A stretch of DNA of 64,000 nucleotides from Dokdonella sp. (GTDB taxonomy: Bacteria; Pseudomonadota; Gammaproteobacteria; Xanthomonadales; Rhodanobacteraceae), in assembly GCA_016712865.1 (NCBI GenBank), contig JADJQH010000002.1:744001-808000 (forward strand), given 5' to 3'. The stretch's first letter is position 1; each line of letters begins with the position of its first letter. Shown here piece after piece: positions 8,476 to 64,000 of the stretch. Made by a program: the position numbers and the translations under genes. Under the pieces are notes generated by a model that was not told the DNA's origin, ran no database searches, and saw only the letters and a list, made by a program, of their open reading frames with translations.

Positions 8476-8567
8476 AATTGCCCATCAAGCCGGTGGGGTT
8501 TCACCCAATCTTAAAGATTCAAGGTTATCCTGATCGTTCTGTTTACATCGTCCAGCTGGGGAAAATC

Positions 8568-11354
8568 ATGTTGCGATCCGTAATAGCTGCAACGCTGATG
8601 GCGTTGCTGGGTGCAGTCTGCGGTCATGCGCAGGCGCAGGTGGTAATCAGCCAGGTGTATGGCGGGGGTGGCAATGGCGGCTCCACCTTTACCCATGACT
8701 TCATGGAAATCTTCAATGCTGGTCCCAGCGCGCAGAGCCTCAACGGCTGGTCCATCCAGTACACATCCTCGTCGGGTACCACTTGGATCGTGACCAATCT
8801 GACCAATGTCACCTTGCAACCCGGCCAGTACTACCTGATCCAGCAAGCCCAAGGCGCCGGCGGCACCACGCCGCTGCCAACGCCCGACGCCACCGGCACT
8901 GTCGCCATGCAAGGTTCGAACGTGAAAGTGGCGTTGTCAAATTCCACCGCCGCGCTTTCCGGATCCTGCCCCAGTGGCGGCGCCGTGCAGGACCTGGTCA
9001 CTACCGGATCGGCCAATTGCCCGAATCCGGCCGGCGCCATGTCCGCAGTCAATTCGGCAAGCCGCAATGGCAACGGCTGCACCAACACCGGAAACAACAC
9101 ACTTGATTTCACCATTGCGCCGGCGGCACCGCGCAACACCGCTACACCCGCCGTACCCTGCGGTGGCGGCGGAACGCCGCTCATCAGCATGGCCAATATC
9201 GCATTGCCCGAAGGCAATACCGGCCTGACGCCCTTCGTGTTCACCGTGCAATTGAGCCAACCGGCAGGTGCTGGCGGTGTCAGCTTCAGCTACACCACGC
9301 AGGACGGTACCGCCCTCGCCGGAGTTGACTACAACACCGCCAGCGGCAACGGATCGATTGCACAGGGCTCCAGCTCGACCACCATCCAGGTCGACGTGAT
9401 TGCCAACACTGCCACCGAGCCGGACAGCCAGTTCTCCGTGCAATTGAGTGCGGTCAGCGGCGCTCTGCCGGCCACCTTGAGCGCAACCGCGACCATCGAA
9501 GATGACGACATCGGCACCTTTGCCATCCACGACATCCAGGGCTCGGGAAGCGCATCACCCAATGCCGGACAAACCGTGAACACCAACGGCAACATCGTCA
9601 CCGCGGTGGATACCAACGGCTTCTTCATCCAGGCCCGCGATGCCAGCGCGGACGCCGACCCGATGACCTCGGAAGGCATCTATGTGTTCACGGGCTCGGT
9701 ACCGACCGTGCAGGTGGCCGATGAAATCAACCTGACCGCCGATGTCTCCGAGTTCTTCGGGCTGACCGAATTGAGCAACATCAGCGCCCTGAGCATCACC
9801 AGCACCGGCAATGCATTGCCAACGGCCATCGTGTTCGATGCCAGCCGACCCTCGCAGGATGTCAACGCACTGAGCTGCGGCAGCTCCAATTTCGAGTGCT
9901 ACGAAGGCATGCGCGTGCAGATCGACAACGGCATCGTGGCGCGCGCCAATCCCAGTTTCGGCACCGATCCCTACGCGCAGATCTTCGTCTCCGCCTCAGG
10001 CGAGCGTTCGCTGCGCACGCCGGGCGTGTTGTATCCACTGGTGCCCGGCGTTGACAACCCGGCTGCCGGCACTTTTGGCGGCAATCCGCATATCTTCGAA
10101 ATCGATGCGGATGCACTCGGCGCGGTACCGCCCAACACGGCCATCACCGGCGGCAGCCGCTTCAGCGCAACCGGCGTGATGACCTACACCTTCGGCGACT
10201 ACGAGCTGTGGCCGACCGCGTTCAGCGTGACTGAGGCCAACACCATGCCGCGGGCCGTGCGCGCAGGACAGGGAGGCGACGAACTGCGCATCGGCAGCTT
10301 CAACATGCTGCGCCTGTGCGACACCCAAGCCAACACCACGTTCACCTGTGGCGACGGTGGCGAACCGAATCAGGCGGAGCTCGATCTGAAGGTCGCCCGC
10401 CTGTCGGACTACGTGGGCAATGTGCTGGAACTGCCGGATCTGCTGGCGGTGGTCGAGGTCGAGAACATCGCGGTGCTGACCCAGCTTGCGGCAAAAATCC
10501 AGACCGACTTCGGCATCATCTACACGCCGTATCTGGAGGAAGGCAATGACGGCGGCGGCATCGACGTCGGCTACCTGGTGCAGAGCGCACGCATCAGCAA
10601 TGTCGTCATCACCCAACTCGATGCCACGGAAACATGGCTCGATCCGGATGATGGCCAGCTCGACACCCTGCACGATCGTCCGTCGCTGAAACTGGAAGGC
10701 ACCTTCGCCGGCCAGAACTTCGCCACCATTGTCGTGCACCCGAAGTCGCGCAGCTGCGTGGACGCGCCCACCGGCGCCAACTGCACCCAGGCCAATGTCG
10801 ACCGCAACCGTCTCAAGCGCTTCACCCAGGCGCGTTCGATTGCCTTGCGCGTGCAAGCGGAACAGGTCGCCCAACCCAATCGACCGCTGCTGGTGATCGG
10901 CGATTTCAACGATTACCAGTTCAGCGACGGCTTCGTGAACATCACCGGCCTCATCGCCGGCACCTACGACGATGCCGCCAACGTGATCGACCTGGGCACG
11001 CCCAACATCGTCACTCCGGCGTTGTGGAATGCGGTGACATCGCTGCCGGCCAATGAGCAGTACTCGTTCCTGTTCACCCAGCAGTTCGGCGCGATCCTCG
11101 GCTACACGCCACCGCCCAGCGGCTTCGACACCGGGCGCGACGTGCCGATCATGCAGGTGCTCGACCATGCGCTGTTGAATGGCCCGGCCCATGCGCTGTT
11201 TGACGGCTTCGAGTACGGTCGCGGCGACCTGGATGCGGCCGATGAGGACGCGGAGAACAGCACCACTGCCATCGGCGTATCCGACCACGATGGATTCGTC
11301 GTGCGCCTAGTCCTCGACCGAATCTTTGCCGACAGTTTCGGCGGGGACCAGTAA
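8568..11354 (+). CDS. Secreted multidomain ExeM/NucH-type endonuclease with FADGFE-like C-terminus
   Basis: A 928-residue exported protein. The signal peptide is about residues 1-24 (ending GHAQAQ). Then come a lamin-tail domain (VVISQVYGGGGNGG, DFMEIFN), a Calx-beta domain at about 205-305 (ending ATIEDDD), an OB-like linker, and from about residue 570 an endonuclease/exonuclease/phosphatase domain. Catalytic motifs seen there are GSFNMLRL, VEVEN, GDFNDYQ near 780 and VSDHDGF near 904. This is the layout of extracellular nucleases such as ExeM that use DNA as nutrient or remodel biofilm. It ends in DRIFADSFGGDQ, a variant of the FADGFE motif shared by other exported proteins here. The frame is open upstream, but the ATG at 8568 precedes a clean signal peptide. 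Confidence 0.88.
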   Translation: MLRSVIAATLMALLGAVCGHAQAQVVISQVYGGGGNGGSTFTHDFMEIFNAGPSAQSLNGWSIQYTSSSGTTWIVTNLTNVTLQPGQYYLIQQAQGAGGTTPLPTPDATGTVAMQGSNVKVALSNSTAALSGSCPSGGAVQDLVTTGSANCPNPAGAMSAVNSASRNGNGCTNTGNNTLDFTIAPAAPRNTATPAVPCGGGGTPLISMANIALPEGNTGLTPFVFTVQLSQPAGAGGVSFSYTTQDGTALAGVDYNTASGNGSIAQGSSSTTIQVDVIANTATEPDSQFSVQLSAVSGALPATLSATATIEDDDIGTFAIHDIQGSGSASPNAGQTVNTNGNIVTAVDTNGFFIQARDASADADPMTSEGIYVFTGSVPTVQVADEINLTADVSEFFGLTELSNISALSITSTGNALPTAIVFDASRPSQDVNALSCGSSNFECYEGMRVQIDNGIVARANPSFGTDPYAQIFVSASGERSLRTPGVLYPLVPGVDNPAAGTFGGNPHIFEIDADALGAVPPNTAITGGSRFSATGVMTYTFGDYELWPTAFSVTEANTMPRAVRAGQGGDELRIGSFNMLRLCDTQANTTFTCGDGGEPNQAELDLKVARLSDYVGNVLELPDLLAVVEVENIAVLTQLAAKIQTDFGIIYTPYLEEGNDGGGIDVGYLVQSARISNVVITQLDATETWLDPDDGQLDTLHDRPSLKLEGTFAGQNFATIVVHPKSRSCVDAPTGANCTQANVDRNRLKRFTQARSIALRVQAEQVAQPNRPLLVIGDFNDYQFSDGFVNITGLIAGTYDDAANVIDLGTPNIVTPALWNAVTSLPANEQYSFLFTQQFGAILGYTPPPSGFDTGRDVPIMQVLDHALLNGPAHALFDGFEYGRGDLDAADEDAENSTTAIGVSDHDGFVVRLVLDRIFADSFGGDQ

Positions 11355-11363
11355 AACGGCAAC

Positions 11364-11396
11364 GCGACCCTTCCGATTCATGGAAGGGTCGCTTTT
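11364..11396 (+). terminator. Rho-independent terminator after the secreted nuclease
   Basis: A perfect 11-bp stem GCGACCCTTCC / GGAAGGGTCGC with a short loop is followed by TTTT, ten bases after the nuclease stop. Confidence 0.9.
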
Positions 11397-11411
11397 CCTG
11401 ATGCAGGCAAT

Positions 11412-11475
11412 CAGCCGAGCAAGCTCGGCTCTACGACCGCAACGCGGGTTTTGTAGAGCCGAGCTTGCTCGGCTG
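11412..11475. repeat. Perfect 23-bp inverted repeat (GAGCAAGCTC family)
   Basis: CAGCCGAGCAAGCTCGGC and five more bases pair perfectly with 11453-11475 across an 18-base loop. The core GAGCAAGCTC recurs in the small mobile elements at 22.4, 50.1 and 51.4 kb. It lies between convergent genes. Confidence 0.85.
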
Positions 11476-11547
11476 GGTGTACCCCATTGCCTTGATCAGC
11501 GCACGCTTCGCCCTGCTACCGCAATGGTTAGCGTATTTTCGGGCTGA

Positions 11548-12390
11548 TCAATTGCTCTCGGTGGACGGCGCGTACAAGGCCTTGCGTGGCGCGCCGGTGA
11601 TCGCCGCTGCCATGCGCGCTGCACGCGCCGGTGCCATCTCCTCGCACAACAAGGCAAACACGCGACGACCTTCCGCCAGGGTTGCGTCGGCCTGCTCGCC
11701 GCTGGCACCGGCAACCATCACCACGAACTCGCCGCGCTGCTGATTGGCATCAGCGGCTACCCGCGCTTCGAGTTGCGCGAGCGAACCTGAAATCACGGTC
11801 TCGAACACCTTGGTCAATTCGCGCGCGATCACTGCCTGCCGTTCGGAGCCGAACACGGCGACCAAGTCGCGCAGGGTCTCCAGGATGCGATGGCTCGATT
11901 CGTAGAAGATCAAGGTGCGGGCTTCCGCAAACAGCTCGCCAATCCTTTCGCGTCGTGCGGATGCCTTGGCCGGCAGGAATCCCTCGAACACGAAACGATC
12001 ACTGGCAAGCCCCGCCACGGACAGGGCGGCGATGGCGGCGCAAGGCCCCGGCACCGGACTCACGCAGATCCCCGCATCGCGCGCCGCGCGCACCAGCCGA
12101 TAGCCGGGATCGCTGACCAGTGGCGTGCCCGCATCCGAGATCAGCGCGATGTCGGTGCCCTGCTGCAATCGCTCAAGCAGATGCGCCACCTGATCGCGCT
12201 CGTTGTGTTCATGCAAGGCAATGCACGGTGCGCGGCTGCCCACGCGTGCGAGCAAGAGTGCGCTGTGCCGGGTGTCCTCGGCGGCGATCAACTGCACCGT
12301 GCGCAGCACGTCCGCTGCGCGCGGCGACAAGTCATCCAGATTGCCGATGGGCGTTGCCACCACCCACAAGCGCCCTTGAGCCACGTTCAT
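11548..12390 (-). CDS. rsmI: 16S rRNA (cytidine1402-2'-O)-methyltransferase RsmI
   Basis: SAM-dependent methyltransferase for C1402 of 16S rRNA, with the tetrapyrrole-methylase fold. The 280-residue product opens with LWVVATPIGNLDDLSPRA. Conserved stretches AEDTRHS, LISDAGTPLVSDPGYRLV, PVPGPCAAIAAL and FYESSHRI are all present. The ATG at 12388-12390 is chosen because the domain starts there, although the frame is open upstream. It is divergent from lpoA across 142 bp, the same gene order as yraL-yraM in Escherichia coli. Confidence 0.95.
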   Translation of the reverse strand: MNVAQGRLWVVATPIGNLDDLSPRAADVLRTVQLIAAEDTRHSALLLARVGSRAPCIALHEHNERDQVAHLLERLQQGTDIALISDAGTPLVSDPGYRLVRAARDAGICVSPVPGPCAAIAALSVAGLASDRFVFEGFLPAKASARRERIGELFAEARTLIFYESSHRILETLRDLVAVFGSERQAVIARELTKVFETVISGSLAQLEARVAADANQQRGEFVVMVAGASGEQADATLAEGRRVFALLCEEMAPARAARMAAAITGAPRKALYAPSTESN

Positions 12391-12532
12391 GCCCGAATCC
12401 TGCACATCATTGCCCGCAGCATAGCCGACCCTGCTTTGCGGGTGCGCACTGCGTAATGCAAGTGAGCACGCAAACGTCATGCCCGCTGCATCCGGGCTAT
12501 CATGCGCGCTGTTCCTGATTCGGCTCACGACC

Positions 12533-14365
12533 ATGCCCGAACGCGCTTGCACACTTCTGATCCGCCTGACCTTGCTTTTGCTGCTCGGCTTGCTGGGCGC
12601 CTGCGCGTCCAGCGGTGTCGTCACACGGGACTCGGTGCCGCAAGGCGAAAGTGCGGAGCAGCTGGTCGAAGCAGGCAAGCTGGAAGAGGCCGCTGCGGAA
12701 TTCCTGCGCCTTGCAGAAACCGGCAGTCGTGCGGACAGCGCGCACTATTCCCTGCGCGCAGGCGAGACACTGCGCGAGAATGGCGATTATGCCGGCGCCC
12801 AGCGCGCGATCGCCGACATCCGGCGCAAGCGTCTGGCAGGCGAGGACCTGGTGCGATTTGATCTGCTCGATGCGGAGATTGCCTTGAACGCGGGCGATGC
12901 TGATCGCGCATCGGCCCTGCTGGCCATGCCAACCGATGGCCTGTCGCCACCGCTGCTCGCGCGCCTGCTGGAATTGCAGGCACGCGCAGCCGATGCCAAC
13001 CAGGATCATTTCGCTGCGGTGAGAATCCGCGCCAGTCTGGATGCGCTCCTCGCCGGCGCGGACCGCGACATCAATCGCAGGCAGATCCTGGAAGTTCTCA
13101 CAAAGCTCGATCCGGATAGCCTCAAGGCAAAGGCAATGTCGCTGCGACCGGACGATGCCCTGCAGCCATGGATTGAGTACGCACTACGCCAGCGCGGCCA
13201 GATGCTGGCTCGCGACCTGCCACGACCACAACGACCGGTGGGCACCCTGCTGCCGGATTCCGGCCAGGGCGACCGTCGCGAAGGCTATGGAGAGGTTGGC
13301 CAGGTGGCCGTGTTGCTGCCTCTGACCGGCCAGGTTGCCGGTGTCGCGCATTCCATACTCGATGGAATTTTCGCCGCCCACTTTGCCGACGCGGGAGCAG
13401 AGCGCCCGCTGCTGCGCGTGTACGACGCCGGACAGACACCGCAGGATGCGGTGGCCGCATACCAGAAGGCCGTGGCCGAAGGTGCCCGCCTGGTGGTGGG
13501 TCCGCTGCTGCGCGAGGCGGTGGGCGAATTGTTTCGCCAACAACTGCCGGTACGCGTGCTGGCATTGAATCATCCGGACAGCGGCGAAATCCCGCCTTCC
13601 GGCAGCGCGGAATTCGCCCTGCTGCCGGACGCCGAAGGTGCGCAGGCCGCGGAACGCATGCTTGCACTGGGTATCCGCCAGGCTGCGGTGATTGCCGCCA
13701 CAACCGACTGGGCGGAGCGCGCGTCCCTGGCCTTCCGCGCGCAGTTCGAAGCGGGCGGCGGCAGCATCGCCGGTGAATCCCGAATCGCGGACAAGGATTT
13801 CAACTTCAAGAGTGCCATTGCACAGGCCGCCGGCAACTTTGCCACGCGCGACATCATCAACAACGACCCGACGATTGCCAGCCAGACTGCACCACCTGTT
13901 CCCGATACCGGTGTCTTCATCAGCATGCGTCCGCAGCAGGCACGCCTGCTGCTGCCGCAATTGAAACTGGCCCGAGTCACCTCACCCGTCTTTGCCACTT
14001 CGCACGTCAACGCCGGAGGCAGCAATCCCGGCGCCGACCGCGACCTGCAGGGCGTCGAGTTCTGCGATGCGGCGTGGCTGTTCGCACCCGTGGCGGGACG
14101 GCCGGATCGCGAAACCATGGCGCGCAATCTCGGCACCGCGGCCGGTCTCGGTGGCCGCCTGTTTGCCTTTGGCATGGATGCCTATGCGCTGCTGCCTTAT
14201 CTCGACTGGCTGCTCGCGCACCCGGACGCCTACCTGGATGGCGCCAGCGGCCAGCTCGCCGTCGACAATTTCGGTCGCGTGCACCGATTGCTTTCCTGGG
14301 CACGATTCAGCGACGGTATTGCACAACCCGTGCAAGGTGCGCTCAGTCCGTTGCCGCTGCAGTAG
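12533..14365 (+). CDS. lpoA: LpoA-type outer-membrane lipoprotein activating penicillin-binding proteins
   Basis: Lipoprotein that in E. coli reaches through the periplasm to stimulate PBP1A. The 610-residue product has a lipobox LLGAC at about residue 22, an N-terminal TPR-like helical part to about 210 and a periplasmic-binding-like domain starting with VAVLLPLTGQVAGVAHSILDG near 258. Position between rsmI and yraN matches the conserved order. The start at 12533 gives a normal lipoprotein signal; earlier codons do not. The stop codon shares its last base with an inverted-repeat element. Confidence 0.9.
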   Translation: MPERACTLLIRLTLLLLLGLLGACASSGVVTRDSVPQGESAEQLVEAGKLEEAAAEFLRLAETGSRADSAHYSLRAGETLRENGDYAGAQRAIADIRRKRLAGEDLVRFDLLDAEIALNAGDADRASALLAMPTDGLSPPLLARLLELQARAADANQDHFAAVRIRASLDALLAGADRDINRRQILEVLTKLDPDSLKAKAMSLRPDDALQPWIEYALRQRGQMLARDLPRPQRPVGTLLPDSGQGDRREGYGEVGQVAVLLPLTGQVAGVAHSILDGIFAAHFADAGAERPLLRVYDAGQTPQDAVAAYQKAVAEGARLVVGPLLREAVGELFRQQLPVRVLALNHPDSGEIPPSGSAEFALLPDAEGAQAAERMLALGIRQAAVIAATTDWAERASLAFRAQFEAGGGSIAGESRIADKDFNFKSAIAQAAGNFATRDIINNDPTIASQTAPPVPDTGVFISMRPQQARLLLPQLKLARVTSPVFATSHVNAGGSNPGADRDLQGVEFCDAAWLFAPVAGRPDRETMARNLGTAAGLGGRLFAFGMDAYALLPYLDWLLAHPDAYLDGASGQLAVDNFGRVHRLLSWARFSDGIAQPVQGALSPLPLQ

Positions 14366-14611
14366 CCTGCATTATTCACGAACGTCGCAGGAAAACGCTC
14401 GAAGCTTAGGTATGACAACGCATCCGACAACTCTGCTATTTCAACAAAGCGTCCACATGCGTTTCCCTGCTGGCACGGCCATCGCGGGTCTTTTCCCCCA
14501 ATCGCTGCGTTGCTTGTCGCCCCAATGGAACCACCATTGCGGCTCCGCGCGCCTTGCGCTTGGGGCAAAATCCTCCGCGATCATCCGCGCCCGCTCATGA
14601 ATAATGCAGGC
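14365..14611. mobile_element. 247-bp MITE-like element between lpoA and yraN
   Basis: Terminal inverted repeats GCCTGCATTATTCACGA (14365-14381) and its complement with one mismatch (14595-14611) bound the element. The interior shares about 150 bp, in inverse orientation, with the element at 4631-5060. It has no coding capacity of its own. It runs from the lpoA stop to a possible yraN start, so it has inserted exactly between two normally adjacent genes. No clear target duplication was found. Confidence 0.75.
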
Positions 14612-14980
14612 TGGCGGCAGGTCATGCGCAGCAGCGGTTCACTGTTCGAGGATATTGCGCTGGCACACGCCAAGGCCCAGGGATTGAGCCTGGTCGAACG
14701 CAACTTCAACTGCCGCTTCGGCGAAATCGACCTGATCCTGCGCGAGGGCAATATCGTGGTATTCCTGGAGGTGCGTTACCGGAAGTCACAGGAATTCGGC
14801 GGCGCCATGCAGTCCATAGGCTCGCAGAAGCGCGAGCGATTGCTGAAGGCGGCCAGCCTTTTCCTGCAATCCCGCCCCGAATTTGCCCGCAACGCCTGCC
14901 GCTTCGATGTGATGGCCATCGCCGGCAGTGCGCAACAACCCGACATCAACTGGCAACGCAATGCCTTTGAAGCCTGCTGA
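14597..14980 (+). CDS. yraN: YraN-family protein (UPF0102, endonuclease-like fold)
   Basis: Small conserved protein of restriction-endonuclease-like fold whose cellular role is not established. GSLFEDIALAHAKAQGL, the GEIDLILREGNIVVFLEVRYR core and CRFDVMAIAG match the family. The start is uncertain: ATG at 14597 gives 127 residues and lies in the terminal repeat of the element, whereas ATG at 14624 gives 118 residues and starts closer to the conserved region. An insertion may therefore have supplied a new N-terminus. It is followed after 9 bases by the BON lipoprotein gene. Confidence 0.9.
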   Translation: MNNAGWRQVMRSSGSLFEDIALAHAKAQGLSLVERNFNCRFGEIDLILREGNIVVFLEVRYRKSQEFGGAMQSIGSQKRERLLKAASLFLQSRPEFARNACRFDVMAIAGSAQQPDINWQRNAFEAC

Positions 14981-14989
14981 GGATTCTCC

Positions 14990-15598
14990 ATGCATTCCAC
15001 GTTTTCCCGCCCCATCGCGCTGATCCTGCTCATCCTGCTGCCATTGCTTGGCGGCTGTGTCGCGGCAGTCACCGCCGGTGCGATTGCCACGGGTTCCAGC
15101 GTGCATGATCGGCGCGGATTCGGCACCGTGGTGGACGACAAGCGCATCCAGCTTGGCGCCTATGACGAGATCAACCGCGACAAGGAACTGGTGCTCAAGA
15201 ACCGCGTGATGATCGCGGTCTACAACGGCGTGATGCTGCTCATGGGCGAGGTGCGCACGCCCGATCTCAAACAGCGTGCAGAGCAAACCGTCACTGGATT
15301 CGAGGGCGTGCGTCGCATCGTCAACGAGATCGATGTGATGGAGCCGGAAGGCTTCTGGACCCGGCGCAACGACAACAAGATCACCGCGCGGGTCAAGCTG
15401 GCGCTTGCCGACATCACCAGCGTGCCTGGCTTCGACGCGACCAAGGTCAAGGTCAGCACCGCGCATCGGACCGTGTACCTGATGGGCCTGCTCAGCACCG
15501 AAGAGGTGGAGATCGTCACCGAGATCGCGCGCAACGTTCCCGGGGTGGAGCGCGTGGTCAAGGTGTTCGAGTACACGGAACCATCCACCTCGCACTGA
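14990..15598 (+). CDS. dolP: BON-domain outer-membrane lipoprotein (DolP/YraP type)
   Basis: A 202-residue lipoprotein: LPLLGGC is a lipobox near residue 23. Two BON domains follow: one around RVMIAVYNGVMLLMGEV and one around VKVSTAHRTVYLMGLL. In E. coli DolP supports outer-membrane integrity at division sites. Location after lpoA-yraN matches the conserved cluster, lacking only diaA. The spacing to yraN and to the next gene (4 bases) suggests one transcript. Confidence 0.9.
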   Translation: MHSTFSRPIALILLILLPLLGGCVAAVTAGAIATGSSVHDRRGFGTVVDDKRIQLGAYDEINRDKELVLKNRVMIAVYNGVMLLMGEVRTPDLKQRAEQTVTGFEGVRRIVNEIDVMEPEGFWTRRNDNKITARVKLALADITSVPGFDATKVKVSTAHRTVYLMGLLSTEEVEIVTEIARNVPGVERVVKVFEYTEPSTSH

Positions 15599-51573: not shown

Positions 51574-54118
51574 ATGAATGCGACACGCCCACCCTCCATC
51601 GTGGATCTCAAGGGCCTCGACAGCACGGAAGCCGCGCGGCGCCTGGCCAGCGAGGGGCCCAACATCCTTCCCGGCAATTTGCCGAAGTCGCTGCCGGGAA
51701 TTGTCGCCGGAGTCCTCGTCGAGCCGATGTTCCTCATGCTGCTGGTGGCAGGCGGACTCTACCTGGCGCTGGGCGACATGGCCGAGGCGATATTCCTCCT
51801 GGCCTGCGTGTTTGCCGTCATCGGCATCACCCTTGCCCAGGAGCGCAAGACCCAGCGCGCACTGGAATCCCTGCGCGACCTGTCCGCGCCGCGTGCGCTG
51901 GTCGTGCGCGATGGCGAGGAGGTTCGCATTGCCGGTCGTGATGTCGTGGTCGGCGACCTGCTGGTCCTGCACGAAGGTGATCGCATCGCTGCCGATGCGC
52001 TGCTCGTCGACGGCCAGCTCGATGCCGACGAATCCCCTGCTGACGGGCGAGGCGGTGCCGGTCGCCAAACTGCCGGGAGGACAGTCCGCATCCCTGTTCG
52101 CCGGGACCCTGGTCACGCGCGGCGTCGGCCTCGCCGAAGTGACCAGCATTGCAGGCGCAACGGCGGTGGGACGGATTGGCGAGGCCCTGGCGGCAACCCG
52201 TGAGCCGCCATCGGCGCTGCAAATGGCATCCCGGCGTCTGGTGCGCTGGCTGGCGCTTGGCGGACTCTCGCTTGCAACCCTCTATTTCCTCACCAACTGG
52301 GTGTGGAATGGACAGGGAATGCTGGAAAGCCTGCTCGCCAGCATTGCCCTGATCATGGCCATTCTTCCCGAGGAGATTCCGGTCATCCTCACCGTGTTCC
52401 TTGCGCTCGGCGCCTGGCGCATCTCGCAGCGCAAGGTGTTGACGCGCCGGATACCGGCCGTCGAAGCGCTGGGAGCCATCACGGTGCTGGCAGTGGACAA
52501 GACCGGCACCCTGACCGAGAACCGCATGCAGGTGGCGGAGCTGCAACTGGAGGACGCGCACTTCGTCCACGCCGGCGCCACCACCCTGGAAGAGCCATTT
52601 CACGAACTGGTCGAGTTCGCCATGTTGGCTACGCCCGCCGATCCGTTTGATCCGATGGAAAAGGCGATCCAGCAATTCGGTTTGCATTGGCTGACCGGCA
52701 CCGAGCACGTGCATGCCGAATGGTCGCCCGAGTTCGAGTACGGATTGTCGCCCGACATCCTCGCCATGACGCGCGTGTTTCCGGCGGGTTCAAGCACCCG
52801 GCACATGCTGGCGACCAAGGGCGCGCCCGAGGCCGTGGTCGATCTTTGCCATCTCGACAGCGCGCACGCTCGCAGCATTCTCGATCAGGCGGGGGCCATG
52901 GCTGCGCGCGGCCTGCGTGTGCTCGGCGTGGCCCGCGGTCAATGGCAGGGCGAGTCACCACCGCGCAGCCAGCATGATTTTGATTTCCGCTTTCTCGGCC
53001 TGCTTGGGTTCGTCGATCCACCCCGCGCGGAAGTGCCAGCGGCCATTGCCGAGTGCCGCGCCGCGGGCGTGCGCATCATCATGCTCACCGGCGATCATCC
53101 CGCGACCGCACTGGCCATAGCGCGCGACGTGGGGCTGAGCGAGCGCCCCGATGTCATCAGCGGTGCGCAGATCGACACGCTTGACGATCGGGCGCTGGCC
53201 GAGCGCCTGCGCCAGGTGGATGTCTGCGCGCGCCTGCAACCGGTACAGAAACTGCGCCTGGTGCACCTGCTTCGCCAGCAAGGCGAGGTGGTTGCCATGA
53301 CCGGCGATGGCGTCAACGATGCTCCGGCACTGAAGGCGGCCGACGTCGGTATTGCCATGGGCAAGCGCGGTACCGACGTGGCCCGCGAGTCGGCGTCGCT
53401 GGTCCTGCTCGATGACAGCTTCAGCAGCATCGTCGCCGCCATCCGCCAGGGACGACGCATCTACGACAACATCACCAAGGCCACGCGTTTCGTGATGGCC
53501 GTGCACATGCCCATCATTGCGCTCACCCTGATCCCTTCACTGCTGCATTGGCCGGCCATGTTGACGCCGGTGTTGATCGTCCTGCTCGAACTGCTGATCG
53601 ATCCGGCCTGCTCGATCGTGTTCGAGGCCGAGCCCGAAGCCGATGACATCATGCGCCGTCCGCCACGTTCAGTGAACGCGTCTCCGTTCGCCATCGGCAA
53701 TATCGTTCCTGCCGCGATCCAGGGAATTGGAGCGTCGATCATCCTGCTGGTCGGCTACGGCAGCATGCTCGGCCTTGGCATCGATCCTGCGCACAGCCGC
53801 ACGGCGATTTTCATCGCCCTCGTGCTGGGCTTGTTTGCACTGATTCTCGGCAATCGCCATCCCGAGGATCCACTGATCTCCGGCAGTGGCGTGCGCAACC
53901 GCTGGTTGTGGCCCATGCTCGCCGGTGTCGTGCTCGTGCTGGTACTCGCCGTGGGCACGCCCTACCTGCGCGACATCATGGGCCTGACCGTACCGGGCGC
54001 GATCAGCCTCGGCGCCTCCGCAATGCTGCTGCTTGCAACATTCATCTGGCTTGAAGCGTTGCGTCTCGTGCTGCGCCGGCACTCGGGTGCATCATTGGCG
54101 CACGGAGGAAAGCCATGA
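51574..54118 (+). CDS. Cation-transporting P-type ATPase (probable single-base frameshift)
   Basis: About 847 codons of a P2-like cation pump in two overlapping frames. The first (from ATG 51574) holds the actuator domain start and ends sensibly at DGQLDADES. The second continues LLTGEAVPVAKLPGG. They join if the CCCC at 52034-52037 is read as CCC. Motifs: TGE of the actuator, PEEIPV in the transport helix, phosphorylation site VDKTGTLTENR, LTGDHP and MTGDGVNDAP, followed by C-terminal membrane helices. The ion cannot be assigned. Its stop overlaps the metallo-beta-lactamase gene (ATGA). Confidence 0.85.
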
Positions 54119-58970: not shown

Positions 58971-59695
58971 GGCGTGGTTTCCTCAGTCGTGAAGGGCATG
59001 GAAAGCGTCAGGCTGACGCGATGTCCCTGCATCTTCTCCTTCCGGCGCACGGCAGGCATTGACCGCGGTCAAATTCGGTGCCTCCGCTGCACGATGGGGC
59101 AACGCGAATCGTCTCGCTCACCCTGAGTCAGTCGAAGGATGCGTGTGAATTGCCCGGATTCCGTTCATGGTTCGACAGGCTCACCACGAACGGCTCAAGA
59201 GGCGTACATGGTTCGACAGGCCTGTCCTGAGCACAGTCGACAGGCTCACCACGAACGGCTCGAGATGCGTTCACGGTTCCCTTCGACAAGCCTGTCCTGA
59301 GCAGAGTCGAAGGGCTCAAGACAGGCTCTGGTTCACCACGAACGGCTCGAGATGCGTTCATGGTTCGACAGGCTCACCACGAACGGAATTGTGGGTTCAC
59401 CACGAACGGTAGCCGCTTGATCAACATTGCCCAAAAACCGTTCGTGGTGAGGAGGAGACGTCGAGACCGAAGGTCGAGCGCCGACGTCTCGAACCACGCG
59501 TCAACTCGCTCTGTCGACCATCAAGGCAGCGCGGATCAAGTCCTGCTTGTCCGGAGCCCACCTGCAAATGAGCGCATGGTGCCTTCGTTCCGTTCATGGT
59601 TCCCTTCGACAAGCCTGTCCTGAGCAGAGTCGAAGGGCTCAGGACAGGCTCTGGCTCACCACGAACGGAGCTTGGGAGCTCCCCTCGAACGGAAA
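58971..59695. repeat. Gene-free region dominated by TTCGACAGGCTCACCACGAA repeats
   Basis: At least six copies, in both orientations, of GTTCGACAGGCTCACCACGA and its variant with CCTTCGACAAGCCTGTCCTG lie between about 59160 and 59690. These are a widespread intergenic repeat type. The only other signal is the FNR-like box at 59059. Confidence 0.85.
59059..59072 (-). promoter_or_regulatory. Anr/FNR-like palindrome upstream of the HMA-like gene
   Basis: TTGACCGCGGTCAA is a perfect 14-base palindrome of the TTGAY-N4-RTCAA type, 89 bases upstream of the start at 58970. The matching -10 is weak. Confidence 0.55.
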
Positions 59696-61690
59696 CTACG
59701 ATTTCAGCGTTGCCTTCAGTTGTCGCAGCGCCATGCCCGCGAGTAGAAGTCCAAGCAGCATGAGCAGAGTCGGATGCAGGGCGGGAATGGATACCGCAAC
59801 GGCACCGCGACAGGCGGTGAATTCCGGTGCGGGTGCGGGTCCCGGCCAAGCGGCGATCAGCGCCTGGGCATCGGCGCAATCCACGCGACCGTCGCCATTG
59901 AAGTCACCTGCCCGGCACTGCTCGGCATTGGCCGTGTTGTTGAGGCACACGCGGAAGCTGGCGACATCATCCTCATCCAGTACGCCATTGCCGTTGAAAT
60001 CCCCACGCACGAAGCTGCCCAGTGCAATCGAGGCACTGGCCATGGTGATCGGCGCGGCGCGACCGCTCTGCTCCCACAGATCGTGCAGGGTGTCGCCCCA
60101 GTGGTTGGTCTGGTTGCCGTCACGCAGGGCCTCGATGTAGTGGCGGGTCACGGTCTGGTACAAGACCCGCACTTCCGCGGTGGCTGCCGCTTGCGGAATC
60201 CAGAATTGGCTGTCGTCCCAGTACTCGCCATCCGCGTAGCTGTGCGCCACGGCCGGCGCGCCGGCCGCGGCAAATGCCGCGTTGTTGAACCCGCGCGGTG
60301 GAATGCGTGAATCCTTGACGATGGTGTCGGCCAATGCCATGTGCGTGGTGCGTCCGGCTTCATTGCCGGTGGCCGCTGCCGCCGCTGCGGACAAGCCCAC
60401 CGCCATTTCATAGACGGTCGTTGATTCCTCGTCGAGATGCGCGCTGCCCGCATCGTAGTGACCGTATTCGCGCAACAGGTTGCCGCCGGAATCCAGCAGG
60501 CGCACTTCGACCCAGGCGCGCCGACCTTCGATGTGGCCGGTGGGCAGCTTGTGGCCGCTCTCGTTGATGACGCGCGTGCGCAGCACGCCGCCGGCATCCT
60601 GTTGCAGTTCCAGCGAAGCGGCGCGCGCGAGCATGTCGTTGGCCGCAGCCATGCCTACTGCCAGCGCGTCCTGATCGATGGCCGGATCATCGGCGTAGTA
60701 GCGACCGATGATGTCGAGCACCCAGGACGAGGCACCGGCGAAATCATGGCTGCGCAGGTCTTCGCGCTCCGGACCGAAGCGACAGGCAAGCCCGGCACGC
60801 ACCGGCATGTGGCAATCCTGGCAGGAGGAAACAATGCCTGCGCCTTCACCACCAAAACGTCCGCCCATGTCCACGCCGCCATCGGCAAACGATGACAGCT
60901 TCCATTCGGTGTAGGTGCGTTCCAGCGGGAAGTGGGTTGCCAGGTCTTCATTCTCGACCGGCGTATCCAGTGCGTTGTAGGCGTAGCTGCCGTCTTCCTG
61001 ACGCGACACGGCGACATTGCCCACATCATGGCAGGTGCCGCACAGCGAGGCGCTGCGGTGGTAGGGCGACACCAGCAATTCATGCGAAGGCGCGGCATCG
61101 GTGCGCGGGCCGCGGCGCACACCGTCCGGATCAAGCACGAACATGGCGTTGCCGGTATGCGCGGGAATCGACTCCAGCGCACCCAGCACTTCGAGGTCGC
61201 GCGGCGGGCTCACCCCGGCCTGATAATCGGGATTGACCATGGCATGGCAGAAATGACAATCCACGCCATCCTCGTCGCGCGCATTCAAGGTGCTGCCGTC
61301 GGCAACCAGGGCATTGCCGCTGACCACCGCATTGGGCACATGGCAGCGCAGGCAGAAGTAGCCGACGTTGGCGACATCCTGGTTGGCGGTGGCAAGCTGG
61401 GCGAAAAACAGCGGATCACGCCCGGCATTCGCCATCAGGCTGCCCTTCCAGCTGGCAAAGGGTTCCGCAGTGGTTTCGGTACCGGAGTGGCAACCCGAAC
61501 ACACCTGCGGCGACTGGAATGAAGCCGGGTTGGCATCGCCGACCTGGGTGCCGGACACGTGGAAATCGCGCAGGGTGGCCGGTACCGGATCGGCAAGGAC
61601 CACCGCTGCGTGCAGCAACATCAGCAGCATGCCGATACCGGCGGCAGGGCCGAACCGACGCGACGACGCCCACCCATCCGCAGCACGCAT
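59696..61690 (-). CDS. Exported pentaheme cytochrome c with dockerin-like repeats and IPTL-like C-terminus
   Basis: A 664-residue exported protein; signal about 1-34 (GIGMLLMLLHAAVVLADP). ATG at 61690 has GGGAG six bases upstream. Five CxxCH haem sites: CSGCH 64, CLRCH 113, CHFCH 145, CGTCH 217 and CQDCH 290. The middle part (HKLPTGHIEGRRAWVEVRLLD) resembles cytochrome c554-type proteins. Near the C-terminus are two EF-hand/dockerin-like repeats (GDFNGNGVLDEDD, GDFNGDGRVDCAD), then SIPALHPTLLMLLGLLLAGMA with basic residues, like an IPTL-CTERM sorting signal. It probably moves electrons outside the inner membrane with the reductase encoded upstream. Confidence 0.85.
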   Translation of the reverse strand: MRAADGWASSRRFGPAAGIGMLLMLLHAAVVLADPVPATLRDFHVSGTQVGDANPASFQSPQVCSGCHSGTETTAEPFASWKGSLMANAGRDPLFFAQLATANQDVANVGYFCLRCHVPNAVVSGNALVADGSTLNARDEDGVDCHFCHAMVNPDYQAGVSPPRDLEVLGALESIPAHTGNAMFVLDPDGVRRGPRTDAAPSHELLVSPYHRSASLCGTCHDVGNVAVSRQEDGSYAYNALDTPVENEDLATHFPLERTYTEWKLSSFADGGVDMGGRFGGEGAGIVSSCQDCHMPVRAGLACRFGPEREDLRSHDFAGASSWVLDIIGRYYADDPAIDQDALAVGMAAANDMLARAASLELQQDAGGVLRTRVINESGHKLPTGHIEGRRAWVEVRLLDSGGNLLREYGHYDAGSAHLDEESTTVYEMAVGLSAAAAAATGNEAGRTTHMALADTIVKDSRIPPRGFNNAAFAAAGAPAVAHSYADGEYWDDSQFWIPQAAATAEVRVLYQTVTRHYIEALRDGNQTNHWGDTLHDLWEQSGRAAPITMASASIALGSFVRGDFNGNGVLDEDDVASFRVCLNNTANAEQCRAGDFNGDGRVDCADAQALIAAWPGPAPAPEFTACRGAVAVSIPALHPTLLMLLGLLLAGMALRQLKATLKS

Positions 61691-61717
61691 GACCCACTCC
61701 CTGACCGGCATTCGCGC

Positions 61718-61760
61718 GATCATGCGCAGCGCCGTGCGCGCCTGCCTTGACCTCCGTCAA
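61718..61760 (-). promoter_or_regulatory. Anr/FNR-like box and -10 of the pentaheme cytochrome gene
   Basis: On the minus strand TTGACGGAGGTCAA (61747-61760) is a perfect TTGAC-N4-GTCAA palindrome. CATGAT (61718-61723) is a fair -10 and puts the box centre about 42 bases from the start of transcription, class II spacing for FNR/Anr. Translation starts at 61690. Confidence 0.6.
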
Positions 61761-61817
61761 GCCGGCGCTCTGGAAAGCGATGTTCCGCGACGATCTGCCG
61801 CGATGGCTGGACAAAGG

Positions 61818-63752
61818 TCAGTCGGAGGCGCGTCCACTGTCGGTGGCTTCGCCGGGTCGTGCCGGATTGAAGGCATCGGAATAGCAAGCCTCTTCGGCCA
61901 GTCCACGCGCAAGGAAGTCAGGCACGGCACTTTCGACCATCTTCACCGAGCCACACACGTAGGCCTCGTAGCCGCGCAGGTCGGCGTGGTCCTCCAGCAT
62001 CACCTGGTGCACCAGGCCGGTGCGGCCATGCCAGACCTCGGCAGCATCCGGATCGGACAACACCGGCACGATTCGGAAATTCGGGTGTTCGCGCGCCCAG
62101 CCCTCGGCGAGATCGAGCATGTACAGGTCATCGACATTGCTCACGCCCCAGTACAGTTGCATGGGTCGTTGCACACCGCGGTGGAATGCGTCTTCAAGGA
62201 TGCTCTTGATCGGCGCAAAGCCGGTGGCACCGGCCACCATCAGCATCGGTCGCGTGCCGGCATGCAGGGTGAAGCGCCCCAGCGGCCCTTCGAAATCGAG
62301 CGTGTCGCCCACCTGCATGCGCTCGAACACGTGCGTGGTGAAACGCCCGCCGGGAATCAGGCGCACGTGCAGTTCGATGAACTCGTTCTCATGCGGCGGG
62401 TTGGCGAAGGAGAACGCACGCCGCTCGCCATCATCGAGGATGATGTTGATGTACTGGCCGGCGACAAAACTGATGCGTTGGCCACCAGGCAAGGACAGCA
62501 TGACCCGCATCACCGTGTCGCTCAGCCGCTCCATGCGCTCGACGCGGCCGCTGTAGCGGATGACCGACGCCGCAGCCGCACGCAGGGACTCGATCGGCAC
62601 CTCGAACTCCACGTCCTCCAGTGCCACCGCACAGCACATCAGGGCCTTGCCTTCCGCGCGCATCTGCTCGGTCAGGGTATTGGGCTGGAATGCACCCTGG
62701 TCGATGCGCCCGTTGAGGATGGTGCACACGCAGACACCGCAACCGCCGTTGCGGCACTCGAAAGGCAGGGTCAGGCCGGCGCGCAGGCCGGCCTCCAGCA
62801 GGGTCTCGCCCTCGCGCGCGTTGACATGCTCGGGACCGGGATGCGCGGTCAACTGGTAGATGCTCTGCGCACCCGGCTTGCGCTTGCCTCGGGCAAGCCA
62901 GGGAACCAGCACCAGCAGCGCGGTGCCGATCACGACCAGGGCCCAGACCGCGGCCAGCGACCAGGCCTTGAGCAATGGATAGACCGGCAGGAAGAACCAG
63001 TCCAGTGCCACCGTCACCACCTCGCTGGCGAGATCGGCCGCTCCGCCGTGACTGTGCACCGGCACCAGCAGCGCCATCGCCAGCAGCATGGCCATGAGGC
63101 CGACGCGGATCGCCTTTGGTGGATTGGTGCTGGCCTTGGGCACGCGCTGCACATGCACCCACATCAGCAACAGCAGCAACAAGGGCACGCCGATGTGAAT
63201 GAAGGCGAGCAGCGAAAACAGGCGATCGTTGACGCTGGATGGATCGATGAAATTGCGGATCAGCGCGCCACCGAATCCGGGCAGCCAGTCCATCCATTCA
63301 AAACTCGAAACCACGACGTACTGCGCCAGCTTGTCCCACGGCAGCATGTAGCCGTTGATGCCGGAAATGTAGACCAGCCAGATCAAGCCGACGCCAGTCA
63401 GCCACGAAAAGGTGCGGAAGCCGTGCATGCGATCGAAGGCGAAGTAGCGCAGCATGTGCAGCAGCATCAACACCACCATCGCATCCGAGGCGTAGCGGTG
63501 AACGCTGCGCAGGATGCCGCCGAAGTACCACTGGTTCTCGGTCAGCGCCTGCACCGAGCTGTAGGCGCCGCTGACACTGGTGTCAAAGAACGCATACAGG
63601 TACAGGCCGCTGCCGGCGACGATCCAGAACAGGAAAAAGGTGATCGAACCCAGGTGGTAGAACGGATTCAGGCGATCTCCAAAGGCGCGGTTGAAGAGGG
63701 CTTCGACCAGCATGAACAGTCGGCGCAGCGCGCCCTGCAGTGCAGCGATCAT
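61818..63752 (-). CDS. Cytochrome b - [2Fe-2S] ferredoxin - flavin reductase fusion
   Basis: A 644-residue three-part redox protein. Residues 1-215 are cytochrome b6-like with two pairs of haem ligands, each 14 residues apart: His85/His99 and His186/His200. More membrane helices reach about 287. Residues about 300-395 are a plant-type [2Fe-2S] domain (Cys333, 338, 341 and about 373). From about 400 is a ferredoxin-NADP-reductase-like module: RAFSFAN for FAD, VAGATGFAPIKSIL for NAD(P) and a YVCGS end. GGAGGGG precedes the ATG. The start overlaps the oxidase-like gene (ATGA). It could couple NAD(P)H oxidation to membrane haems; direction is not known. Confidence 0.88.
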   Translation of the reverse strand: MIAALQGALRRLFMLVEALFNRAFGDRLNPFYHLGSITFFLFWIVAGSGLYLYAFFDTSVSGAYSSVQALTENQWYFGGILRSVHRYASDAMVVLMLLHMLRYFAFDRMHGFRTFSWLTGVGLIWLVYISGINGYMLPWDKLAQYVVVSSFEWMDWLPGFGGALIRNFIDPSSVNDRLFSLLAFIHIGVPLLLLLLMWVHVQRVPKASTNPPKAIRVGLMAMLLAMALLVPVHSHGGAADLASEVVTVALDWFFLPVYPLLKAWSLAAVWALVVIGTALLVLVPWLARGKRKPGAQSIYQLTAHPGPEHVNAREGETLLEAGLRAGLTLPFECRNGGCGVCVCTILNGRIDQGAFQPNTLTEQMRAEGKALMCCAVALEDVEFEVPIESLRAAAASVIRYSGRVERMERLSDTVMRVMLSLPGGQRISFVAGQYINIILDDGERRAFSFANPPHENEFIELHVRLIPGGRFTTHVFERMQVGDTLDFEGPLGRFTLHAGTRPMLMVAGATGFAPIKSILEDAFHRGVQRPMQLYWGVSNVDDLYMLDLAEGWAREHPNFRIVPVLSDPDAAEVWHGRTGLVHQVMLEDHADLRGYEAYVCGSVKMVESAVPDFLARGLAEEACYSDAFNPARPGEATDSGRASD

Positions 63753-64000
63753 GATTGCCCCTCCTTCGCCACGGATTGCGGCGCACGCAACGCCTTCCAG
63801 ACAACAATCACGAACAGCAAGCCTCCGATGATGGCGATCAATCCGCCCATGCCCATCAACCCCATGCCGGCGATTTCCGCCTTGCTGCGCAAGATCTGTT
63901 CGGCGCCGGCAACCTTGCGCTGCACGCCATAACCACCGGACCACACCAGGCCGATGATGTGCATGAGCTGGCCCGCCCCATACAGGCTGGGTTGCCAGCG
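63749..64000 (-). CDS. Haem-copper-oxidase-like subunit I, C-terminal part (runs off right edge)
   Basis: 84 codons, open to the window end. LYGAGQLMHIIGLVWSGGYG followed by VQRKVAGAEQ and a last membrane helix (MGGLIAIIGGLLFVIVVW) resemble the end of a cytochrome-oxidase subunit I-like protein. With so short a piece the family is tentative. The stop overlaps the start of the cytochrome b fusion gene, so the two are translated together. Confidence 0.6.
   Translation of the reverse strand, partial: RWQPSLYGAGQLMHIIGLVWSGGYGVQRKVAGAEQILRSKAEIAGMGLMGMGGLIAIIGGLLFVIVVWKALRAPQSVAKEGQS

What the first reader, a model, noticed from the sequence alone, without database searches (positions are those of the whole stretch)
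59696..64000. Redox module: oxidase-like subunit, cytochrome b/[2Fe-2S]/flavin-reductase fusion, and a pentaheme cytochrome
One gene fuses a b6-type cytochrome (two His pairs), a [2Fe-2S] ferredoxin and an NAD(P)H:flavin reductase. It is coupled by a 4-base overlap to a haem-copper-oxidase-like subunit and lies upstream of an exported five-haem cytochrome. This could form an electron path from NAD(P)H through the membrane to periplasmic haems or oxygen outside the known complexes.
Basis: partly seen in the sequence, partly recalled or inferred. Interest (0 to 1): 0.8.

Follow-up and report, generated by a model that had tools for sequence, protein, structure and literature searches.

The report
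Electron-feeding genes of a nitric-oxide-reductase operon
The three genes are the tail of a larger bacterial gene cluster built around a probable nitric oxide reductase (eNOR type); two of them, a membrane cytochrome wired to an NAD(P)H-oxidising domain and an oxidase look-alike that has lost its copper site, are recurring parts with an unproven electron-transfer role, while the five-haem cytochrome is mostly a local extra.

Summary
The fusion is window 61818-63752(-), 644 aa: b6-like cytochrome, [2Fe-2S], FAD/NAD(P). It overlaps the oxidase-like gene by ATGA; the third gene has five CxxCH. The window cuts the cluster: to the right the same strand carries COX2 (CuA), COX1, haem O synthase, Sco, a second cytochrome b fusion (two [4Fe-4S], FlpD) and a small anchored protein.

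The operon's COX1 has Gln where oxygen reductases have Tyr (89 of 97 rows; the other 8 look like paralogues), the published eNOR mark. So this is most likely a nitric oxide reductase operon.

The 'oxidase-like subunit' keeps its haem ligands but lacks the helix VII CuB His pair: a CuB-less haem-copper family, sister to eNOR in my tree, in 46 of 369 class genomes, also found without eNOR. At least one cytochrome b-FeS fusion stands in 64 of 64 full-context eNOR loci; the pentahaem cytochrome in 3 of 64.

Best reading: the fusions carry electrons from NAD(P)H (and an unknown Fe-S donor) outward to the periplasmic side of the eNOR system; the acceptor is unproven.

The parts
61818..63752 (-). Fusion protein, 644 aa: b6-like cytochrome b + [2Fe-2S] ferredoxin + FAD/NAD(P)H reductase
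62883..63752 (-). Cytochrome b part of the fusion (about residues 1-290), four invariant haem His; conserved LPWD and a D-W motif where cytochrome b has PEWY
62622..62834 (-). [2Fe-2S] (Fer2) domain, residues about 307-377, four invariant Cys
61926..62546 (-). FAD and NAD(P) binding domains, residues about 403-609, like BenC, GcoB, NqrF, Fre
63749..64000 (-). 3' end of the CuB-less haem-copper paralogue (478 aa; the rest lies right of the window, to G000:C2:809185), overlapping the fusion start by ATGA
59696..61723 (-). Five-CxxCH cytochrome, 675 aa, with a C-terminal dockerin-like domain and hydrophobic tail; rarely found beside the cluster elsewhere
60809..61501 (-). Stretch holding the five CxxCH haem motifs (residues 75, 124, 156, 228, 301)
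59852..60004 (-). Dockerin_1-like domain of the cytochrome (residues 574-624)

Best explanation
The genes are the promoter-distal end of an eNOR-type nitric oxide reductase operon: COX2(CuA) - COX1(Gln) - haem O synthase - Sco - [cytochrome b + 2x4Fe-4S + FlpD] - small anchored protein - CuB-less haem-copper paralogue - [cytochrome b + 2Fe-2S + FAD/NAD(P)] - (here) pentahaem cytochrome. The fusion takes hydride from NAD(P)H on FAD in the cytosol, passes single electrons through [2Fe-2S] to the two b haems and so outward across the membrane. The second fusion does the same from another low-potential donor through FlpD and [4Fe-4S]. On the periplasmic side the electrons reach the eNOR system (by the CuB-less paralogue, the small protein, or CuA), which makes N2O from NO. 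Shown: gene order, domains, ligand sets, loss of the CuB His pair, conservation. Inferred: NO as substrate, direction of flow, contact between the b cytochromes and eNOR.
For: Gene order to the right of the window with four-base overlaps. COX1 has Gln at His+4 with an intact His-His pair in 89 of 97 aligned rows; the other 8 carry Phe and Tyr there and are taken by that signature to be CuB-less paralogues (a few rows are duplicate loci). 12 of 12 other B-type relatives from the same class have Tyr. PMC8756737 gives Gln as the eNOR mark (passages). CuA ligands in at least 97% of 88 COX2 rows. G000 has NirK above cut-off, no NirS, no NosZ by TIGR04244 above cut-off (its one weak match is the operon's own COX2), and four PF00115 proteins: an aa3- and a cbb3-like one (named by eye from the ORFs), this one and its paralogue. 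NirS (E below 1e-100) in 19 of 22 genomes with the paralogue against 41 of 129 without; 20 of 22 against 60 of 129 if all Pfam-passing hits count; 19 of 21 against 16 of 38 inside four families (typed subset of 59). A cytochrome b-FeS fusion in 64 of 64 full-context loci: 4Fe-4S type 60, FNR type 48, both 44; small protein and Sco 64 of 64; also in 5 of 5 loci fetched by eNOR alone (L161-L165). In 95 second fusions all 8 Fe-S Cys and 4 FlpD Cys, and the haem His where the row reaches them (89 to 95 rows), are kept. Paralogue and eNOR share 28 genomes, of 46 and 34 in 369.
Against: No biochemistry exists here. Most loci were fetched with the paralogue as query and the named ones are the 80 most similar, so 60 of 64 (paralogue) and 48 of 64 (FNR type) are biased: in the 369-genome class sample a full-length FNR-type fusion is plain only in G000, G231 and, cut by contig ends, G489 (list truncated). 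From the eNOR side 28 of 34 genomes have the paralogue and 17 of 34 within 8 kb. In G231 the FNR-type fusion stands alone far from the operon. The paralogue occurs without eNOR in 18 genomes; of 14 of these looked at, 7 have it beside cox, CtaA or CtaB genes, which fits assembly as well as electron transfer. The b cytochromes keep quinol-site-like motifs, so electrons could come from or go to quinone. NirK shows no link (2 of 22 against 26 of 129). In one Accumulibacter strain the 'ba3' genes, if they are this enzyme, are grouped with aerobic genes repressed by FNR (PMC6446978 passage). eNOR elsewhere is said to take electrons from cytochrome c (recalled).
Confidence: 0.45

Rival explanations
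1. Maturation reductase: the fusions bring reducing power to the periplasm to build the enzyme (for example Cu(II) to Cu(I) for Sco/CuA/CuB, as CcoG is recalled to do for cbb3), and the CuB-less paralogue is a haem-handling or assembly factor.
For: Sco 64 of 64, haem O synthase 48 of 64 and the small anchored protein 64 of 64 in the same loci; paralogues away from eNOR lie by CtaA, CtaB or cox genes in 7 of 14 loci and by RpoH in 2; one fusion type can stand in a locus without the other.
Against: No FixG/CcoG-type domain among the 18 Pfam families listed for the second fusion, and the cytochrome b frame with a D-W motif looks respiratory.
Confidence: 0.2
2. Quinol:NAD(P)+ oxidoreductase: the fusion re-oxidises quinol and makes NAD(P)H, as proposed for the 'novel quinol reductase' of Accumulibacter.
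For: PMC4930944 reports that proposal (passages); PMC2289847 mentions a novel cytochrome (one passage); LPWD and D-W motifs resemble the outer quinol site of b6f (the latter E = 0.14).
Against: Uphill for the electrons and against the membrane potential unless coupled (inference); the reductase part resembles BenC/GcoB/NqrF, which by general knowledge oxidise NADH; identity with the Accumulibacter protein could not be checked.
Confidence: 0.15
3. The operon's oxidase reduces oxygen at low O2 and the module is an oxygen-respiration branch.
For: The same debate exists for sNOR in Nitrosomonas (PMC6967387, passages); the operon carries haem O synthase, with CtaA beside it.
Against: Gln, not Tyr, in all 89 rows taken as true COX1 against Tyr in 12 of 12 B-type relatives; association with NirS.
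Confidence: 0.12
4. Path to periplasmic or extracellular acceptors through the pentahaem cytochrome.
For: Adjacent in G000, L035, L036 and G073; close homologues (56% identity or more) in 7 order genomes, 6 of which have the cluster.
Against: Absent from 61 of 64 loci; in at least three of the co-occurring genomes (G104, G041, G030) it lies elsewhere.
Confidence: 0.05

Closest known systems
eNOR (haem-copper nitric oxide reductase, B-type like)
   Same: COX1 with Gln in place of the cross-linked Tyr, adjacent CuA subunit (criterion from PMC8756737 passages)
   Different: In the loci seen here accompanied by cytochrome b-FeS fusions, a small anchored protein and usually a CuB-less paralogue; whether the eNOR papers describe these is unknown to me (the main one is not held)
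'Novel cytochrome / quinol reductase' of Candidatus Accumulibacter (Garcia Martin 2006; Skennerton 2015)
   Same: By recall a cytochrome b/b6 fused to flavin and NAD(P) domains; cited in PMC4930944 and PMC2289847 (passages)
   Different: No gene context with eNOR in the passages read; sequence not available here
Cytochrome b6 / cytochrome bc1 b subunit
   Same: Four haem His, LPWD, E-F loop weakly like subunit IV (E = 0.14)
   Different: D-W (often LDWF) instead of PEWY, no Rieske gene in the operon, cytosolic redox domains fused
BenC / GcoB / NqrF / Fre reductases
   Same: FAD and NAD(P) domains and, except Fre, a [2Fe-2S] domain; shared fold
   Different: Here fused to a membrane cytochrome; below the NCBIfam cut-offs (BenC 206 of 430 bits)
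Bacterial NADPH oxidase (SpNOX); MsrPQ with Fre; CcoG
   Same: Outward electron delivery from the cytosol across membrane cofactors (SpNOX appears; the functions and the other two are recalled)
   Different: Different membrane parts and acceptors (recalled)

Membership tests
eNOR | Gln at the position of the active-site Tyr (His+4, helix VI) | tested here: met
   89 of 97 rows Gln, 8 Phe rows judged to be paralogues; 12 of 12 B-type controls and the A-type Tyr
eNOR | CuB His pair and three haem His present in subunit I | tested here: met
   H69 96 of 97 (1 gap); H231, H385, H387 97 of 97; H280 and H281 89 of 97 (taken to be the same 8 rows)
eNOR | Adjacent cupredoxin subunit II with CuA ligands | tested here: met
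   64 of 64; at least 97% of 88
eNOR | Clusters with characterised eNOR sequences | not tested
   no reference eNOR sequence at hand
eNOR | Predicted proton channel | not tested
   channel residues were not compared
eNOR | NO reductase activity | not testable with these tools
   needs enzyme assay
Catalytic haem-copper oxidase (for the oxidase-like subunit) | COX1 fold | tested here: met
Catalytic haem-copper oxidase (for the oxidase-like subunit) | Low-spin and high-spin haem His | tested here: met
   H83, H362, H364 in 101 of 101; in the 14 away from eNOR H362 and H364 14 of 14, H83 13 of 14
Catalytic haem-copper oxidase (for the oxidase-like subunit) | Three CuB His | tested here: not met
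   helix VI His kept; helix VII pair replaced, Tyr at the second in 99 of 101, one row His; pair also absent in 14 of 14 away from eNOR
Catalytic haem-copper oxidase (for the oxidase-like subunit) | Active-site Tyr | tested here: not met
   Phe in 98 of 101
Cytochrome bc1/b6f (for the fusions) | PEWY at the outer quinol site | tested here: not met
   Asp-Trp instead: D251 in 32 of 32, Trp in 90% or more of these; D and W in 95 of 95 of the 4Fe-4S type
Cytochrome bc1/b6f (for the fusions) | Rieske protein in the operon | tested here: not met
   no Rieske domain in the nine operon proteins; elsewhere in the genome not searched
CcoG/FixG cupric reductase (second fusion) | FixG-type domain | tested here: not met
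   none among the 18 Pfam families listed for P0003 at E up to 0.1
Accumulibacter novel quinol reductase | Sequence relation to this fusion | not testable with these tools
   sequence and 2006 paper not held

The most novel reading that the evidence does not exclude
eNOR, the CuB-less paralogue and the two cytochrome b fusions form one membrane complex in which quinol is oxidised at the D-W site and its electrons are split: one goes up to NO through the CuB-less two-haem subunit and CuA, the other down the b haems to NAD(P)+ or a ferredoxin, so that NO reduction pays for low-potential reductant. This would be a bc1-like bifurcation without Rieske, with a copper-less haem-copper protein as the high-potential arm.
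Probability: 0.08. Interest if true: 0.92.

Novelty: new variant of a known kind. Interest (0 to 1): 0.62.

Why it matters
By sequence the Gln-type enzyme is easily named ba3 oxidase. Many nirS-bearing Accumulibacter genomes are reported to lack a nor gene while a 'ba3 oxidase' is annotated in all (PMC6446978 passages); if that is this enzyme, the gap closes and N2O budgets change. The CuB-less family is a natural test of what a haem-copper fold does without copper, and the b-FeS fusions pose a clear question: who feeds eNOR?

Tried and rejected
Oxygen-reducing ba3 oxidase: set aside because of Gln for Tyr. Active oxidase role for the oxidase-like subunit: set aside, CuB His pair gone. Pentahaem cytochrome as core part: set aside (3 of 64). 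sNOR reading (Asn mark): set aside, residue is Gln. Literature: in the rows listed by full-text searches (titles and abstract starts, top rows only) I saw no paper on a CuB-less haem-copper family or on b-FeS fusions in eNOR operons; I looked at passages of ten papers and read one short section of one of them. The main eNOR paper and the 2006 Accumulibacter paper are not held, so 'not in print' cannot be claimed.

Weak points of my own computations: one search read minus-strand loci on the wrong strand and was discarded (replaced). In one search the 'best COX1 hit' picked apparent paralogues in 8 of 97 rows. L161-L166 and L166 are labelled as standalone though they are eNOR subunits. In one search the A-type query was an antisense ORF by mistake; 'near cox genes' rests on the COX1/COX2/CyoE hits and CtaA. 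One search's first pass on the second fusion kept only 6 rows and was redone. One search treats genomes as independent and uses my own NirS limit (E below 1e-100); one search repeats it with all hits over the Pfam cut-off. One search uses only genomes whose family label was printed. G102 was left out of the 22 paralogue genomes because its only hit is the eNOR subunit; with it 19 of 23. In the class searches only the top 3 or 4 first-look candidates per genome were scored, so absences are soft. One search started from 98 loci, dropped 3 exact duplicates and 31 without full context; near-identical loci (such as L003 and L035) were kept.
Full report
WHAT IS THERE. The window lies at G000:C2:744001-808000. 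The three genes of the finding are on the minus strand. The fusion runs from ATG at 63752 to 61818 (644 aa) and holds Pfam Cytochrome_B, Fer2, FAD_binding_6 and NAD_binding_1. The oxidase-like gene ends at 63749, overlapping the fusion start by ATGA; only its 3' end is in the window. The downstream gene (59696-61723) has five CxxCH motifs, a Dockerin_1-like domain and a hydrophobic tail. Reading on to the right shows the rest of the set on the same strand, in L003 coordinates (window = L003 + 56000): COX2 14926-15486, COX1 13236-14936, haem O synthase 12212-13111, Sco about 11190-12221, a second fusion 9682-11229 (cytochrome b, two [4Fe-4S], FlpD), a 167-aa protein 9182-9685 with one N-terminal hydrophobic stretch, and the oxidase-like gene 7749-9185. 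From the second fusion to the FNR fusion, neighbours overlap by four bases. CtaA (COX15) lies divergently upstream.

THE CATALYTIC CORE IS A PROBABLE NO REDUCTASE. COX1 of the operon is a B-type relative (PDB best 7deg, then T. thermophilus ba3 chains), but the residue four after the helix VI CuB His is Gln. In 97 aligned rows from the related loci 89 have Gln with an intact His-His pair; the 8 others carry Phe and Tyr at these places and are, by that signature, CuB-less paralogues picked by the script. Twelve of twelve other B-type relatives from the same class have Tyr there. PMC8756737 (passages and its Table A4) gives Gln as the mark of eNOR, Asn of sNOR, Asp of gNOR, Tyr of oxygen reductases; PMC6431628 (passages) notes Tyr-less B-type operons with SCO in Magnetospirilli. 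COX2 keeps its CuA ligands in at least 97% of 88 rows. G000 has four PF00115 proteins: an aa3-like and a cbb3-like one, named by eye from their ORFs, the Gln enzyme and its paralogue; so no recognised cNOR or qNOR. It has NirK above the cut-off, no NirS and no NosZ above the TIGR04244 cut-off (other NosZ models not tried). In 151 genomes of the order, NirS (E below 1e-100) is in 19 of 22 with the paralogue and 41 of 129 without (Fisher 2e-6, not corrected for kinship); counting every hit over the Pfam cut-off, 20 of 22 and 60 of 129 (1e-4); in four families, on the subset of 59 genomes with printed labels, 19 of 21 against 16 of 38. NirK shows no such link (2 of 22 against 26 of 129), nor does NosZ (2 of 22 against 8 of 129).

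THE OXIDASE-LIKE SUBUNIT HAS LOST THE CuB PAIR. Twenty homologues and then 101 rows keep H83, H230, H362 and H364 without exception, that is, by alignment with COX1, the two low-spin haem ligands, the high-spin haem ligand and one CuB ligand. The helix VII His-His pair is gone; the second is Tyr in 99 of 101, and the place of the active-site Tyr/Gln is Phe in 98 of 101. The model (pLDDT 83) matches COX1 folds. No NCBIfam model hits it at E up to 0.1. In a FastTree tree of 66 sequences the 35 CuB-less ones form one clade (support 1.0, long branch 1.9) that joins eNOR (support 0.96) apart from 12 Tyr-bearing B-type oxidases (few outgroups, no other NOR families). In the class sample the paralogue is in 46 of 369 genomes and the eNOR subunit (62% identity or more) in 34; 28 have both, 18 only the paralogue, 6 only eNOR; they lie within 8 kb in 17 of 34 and within 20 kb in 2 more (draft contigs may hide more). 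Of the 18 without eNOR, 14 were fetched: all 14 lack the pair (Tyr280 in 9, H83 in 13); 7 lie beside cox, CtaA or CtaB genes, 2 beside RpoH, one (L153) beside the small protein at a contig end. So it is a wider CuB-less haem-copper family with ties to haem-copper enzymes in general.

TWO CYTOCHROME b FUSIONS. The b parts of the two fusions are 45% identical over 269 residues. Of 64 non-duplicate loci with full context around eNOR, the window's own included (from 98; 3 exact duplicates and 31 short ones dropped), all 64 have COX2, Sco, the small protein and at least one fusion: the 4Fe-4S type in 60, the FNR type in 48, both in 44; haem O synthase in 48, the paralogue in 60, the pentahaem cytochrome in 3. 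These shares are biased: most loci were fetched with the paralogue, the named ones being the 80 most similar. The five loci fetched for eNOR without the paralogue (L161-L165) all have the 4Fe-4S type and the small protein and none the FNR type. In the class sample a full-length FNR-type fusion is plain only in G000, G231 and, in two contig pieces, G489 (list truncated), plus G515. Gene order is the same or has the two fusions swapped in most loci seen; in some the FNR type or the paralogue is turned round or apart (output cut in the middle). Cofactor ligands are strictly kept: FNR type in 32 sequences; 4Fe-4S type in 95 sequences, all eight Fe-S Cys, four FlpD Cys, two haem His in 95 of 95 and two in 89 of 89 rows that reach that far. 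The E-F loop resembles b6f subunit IV weakly (E = 0.14) with Asp-Trp where PEWY stands; the Asp is invariant in both types, the Trp in all 95 of the 4Fe-4S type and 90% or more of 32 FNR-type rows. In G231 an FNR-type fusion stands alone by dxs/ispA-like genes while its eNOR operon has only the 4Fe-4S type (neighbours named by eye), so the fusion can act in trans or elsewhere.

HOW IT MOST LIKELY WORKS. The cytosolic part resembles BenC, GcoB, NqrF and Fre, which by general knowledge oxidise NAD(P)H, and SpNOX, a bacterial NADPH oxidase, is among the matches. I therefore favour outward flow: NAD(P)H, FAD, [2Fe-2S], two b haems, periplasmic side of the eNOR system. That either fusion type can stand in a locus without the other (4 loci FNR only, 16 loci 4Fe-4S only) suggests that both feed one partner, though the missing type may lie elsewhere in the genome, as in G231. 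The partner (CuB-less protein, small protein, CuA, or copper being loaded) is not shown. Confidence 0.45 for this mechanism; for 'eNOR-type operon' alone I would say about 0.85.

WHAT IS KNOWN. eNOR is a described family; papers that use it (PMC8114936, PMC10734462, passages) treat it as an NO reductase with a proposed proton channel. A 'novel cytochrome' or 'quinol reductase' of Accumulibacter, proposed to let quinol be re-oxidised anaerobically, is cited in PMC2289847 and PMC4930944 (passages); by recall it is a cytochrome b/b6-flavin-NAD(P) fusion like this one. PMC6446978 (passages) reports that only a few Accumulibacter genomes have norZ although nirS is widespread, while a 'ba3 oxidase' is annotated in all; its transcripts are high in the anaerobic stage in one strain but group with FNR-repressed aerobic genes in another. 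If that ba3 is the Gln type, both puzzles would meet in this operon; I could not test it.

AGAINST MY READING. Association is not function; the paralogue's place beside ordinary cox genes and the constant presence of Sco fit an assembly role nearly as well; quinol-site-like motifs allow the reverse direction; sampling was partly done with the paralogue itself; NirK and NosZ do not track the cluster.

Noticed in passing
L148-L160, L167: CuB-less haem-copper paralogues without a nearby eNOR, 7 of 14 next to cox/CtaA/CtaB genes and 2 next to RpoH: a wider family without an NCBIfam name (for P0001) whose role there is unknown.
   Followed up: partly
window 59137-59694: Cluster of repeated intergenic units (16 to 78 nt; a 16-nt unit in 6 places, 94-100% alike) reaching up to the 3' end of the cytochrome gene.
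   Followed up: partly
window 51578-54118: P-type cation ATPase ORF whose first ~150 residues do not match the family (E1-E2_ATPase match starts at profile position 54), as if the start lies in another frame; sequencing error or frameshift possible.
   Followed up: no
window 59852-60004: Dockerin-like domain and hydrophobic C-terminus on a multihaem cytochrome, suggesting sorting or surface anchoring; an unusual pairing.
   Followed up: no
G000 against its family f1: In the 151-genome order sample the cluster is in G000 but in no other f1 genome, including one of the same genus: likely acquired or patchily lost.
   Followed up: partly
L122-L125, L127 (family f8): The CuB-less gene lies near the eNOR operon but in the opposite orientation; the three put in the tree (L122, L123, L125) group with RpoH-side ones.
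   Followed up: no
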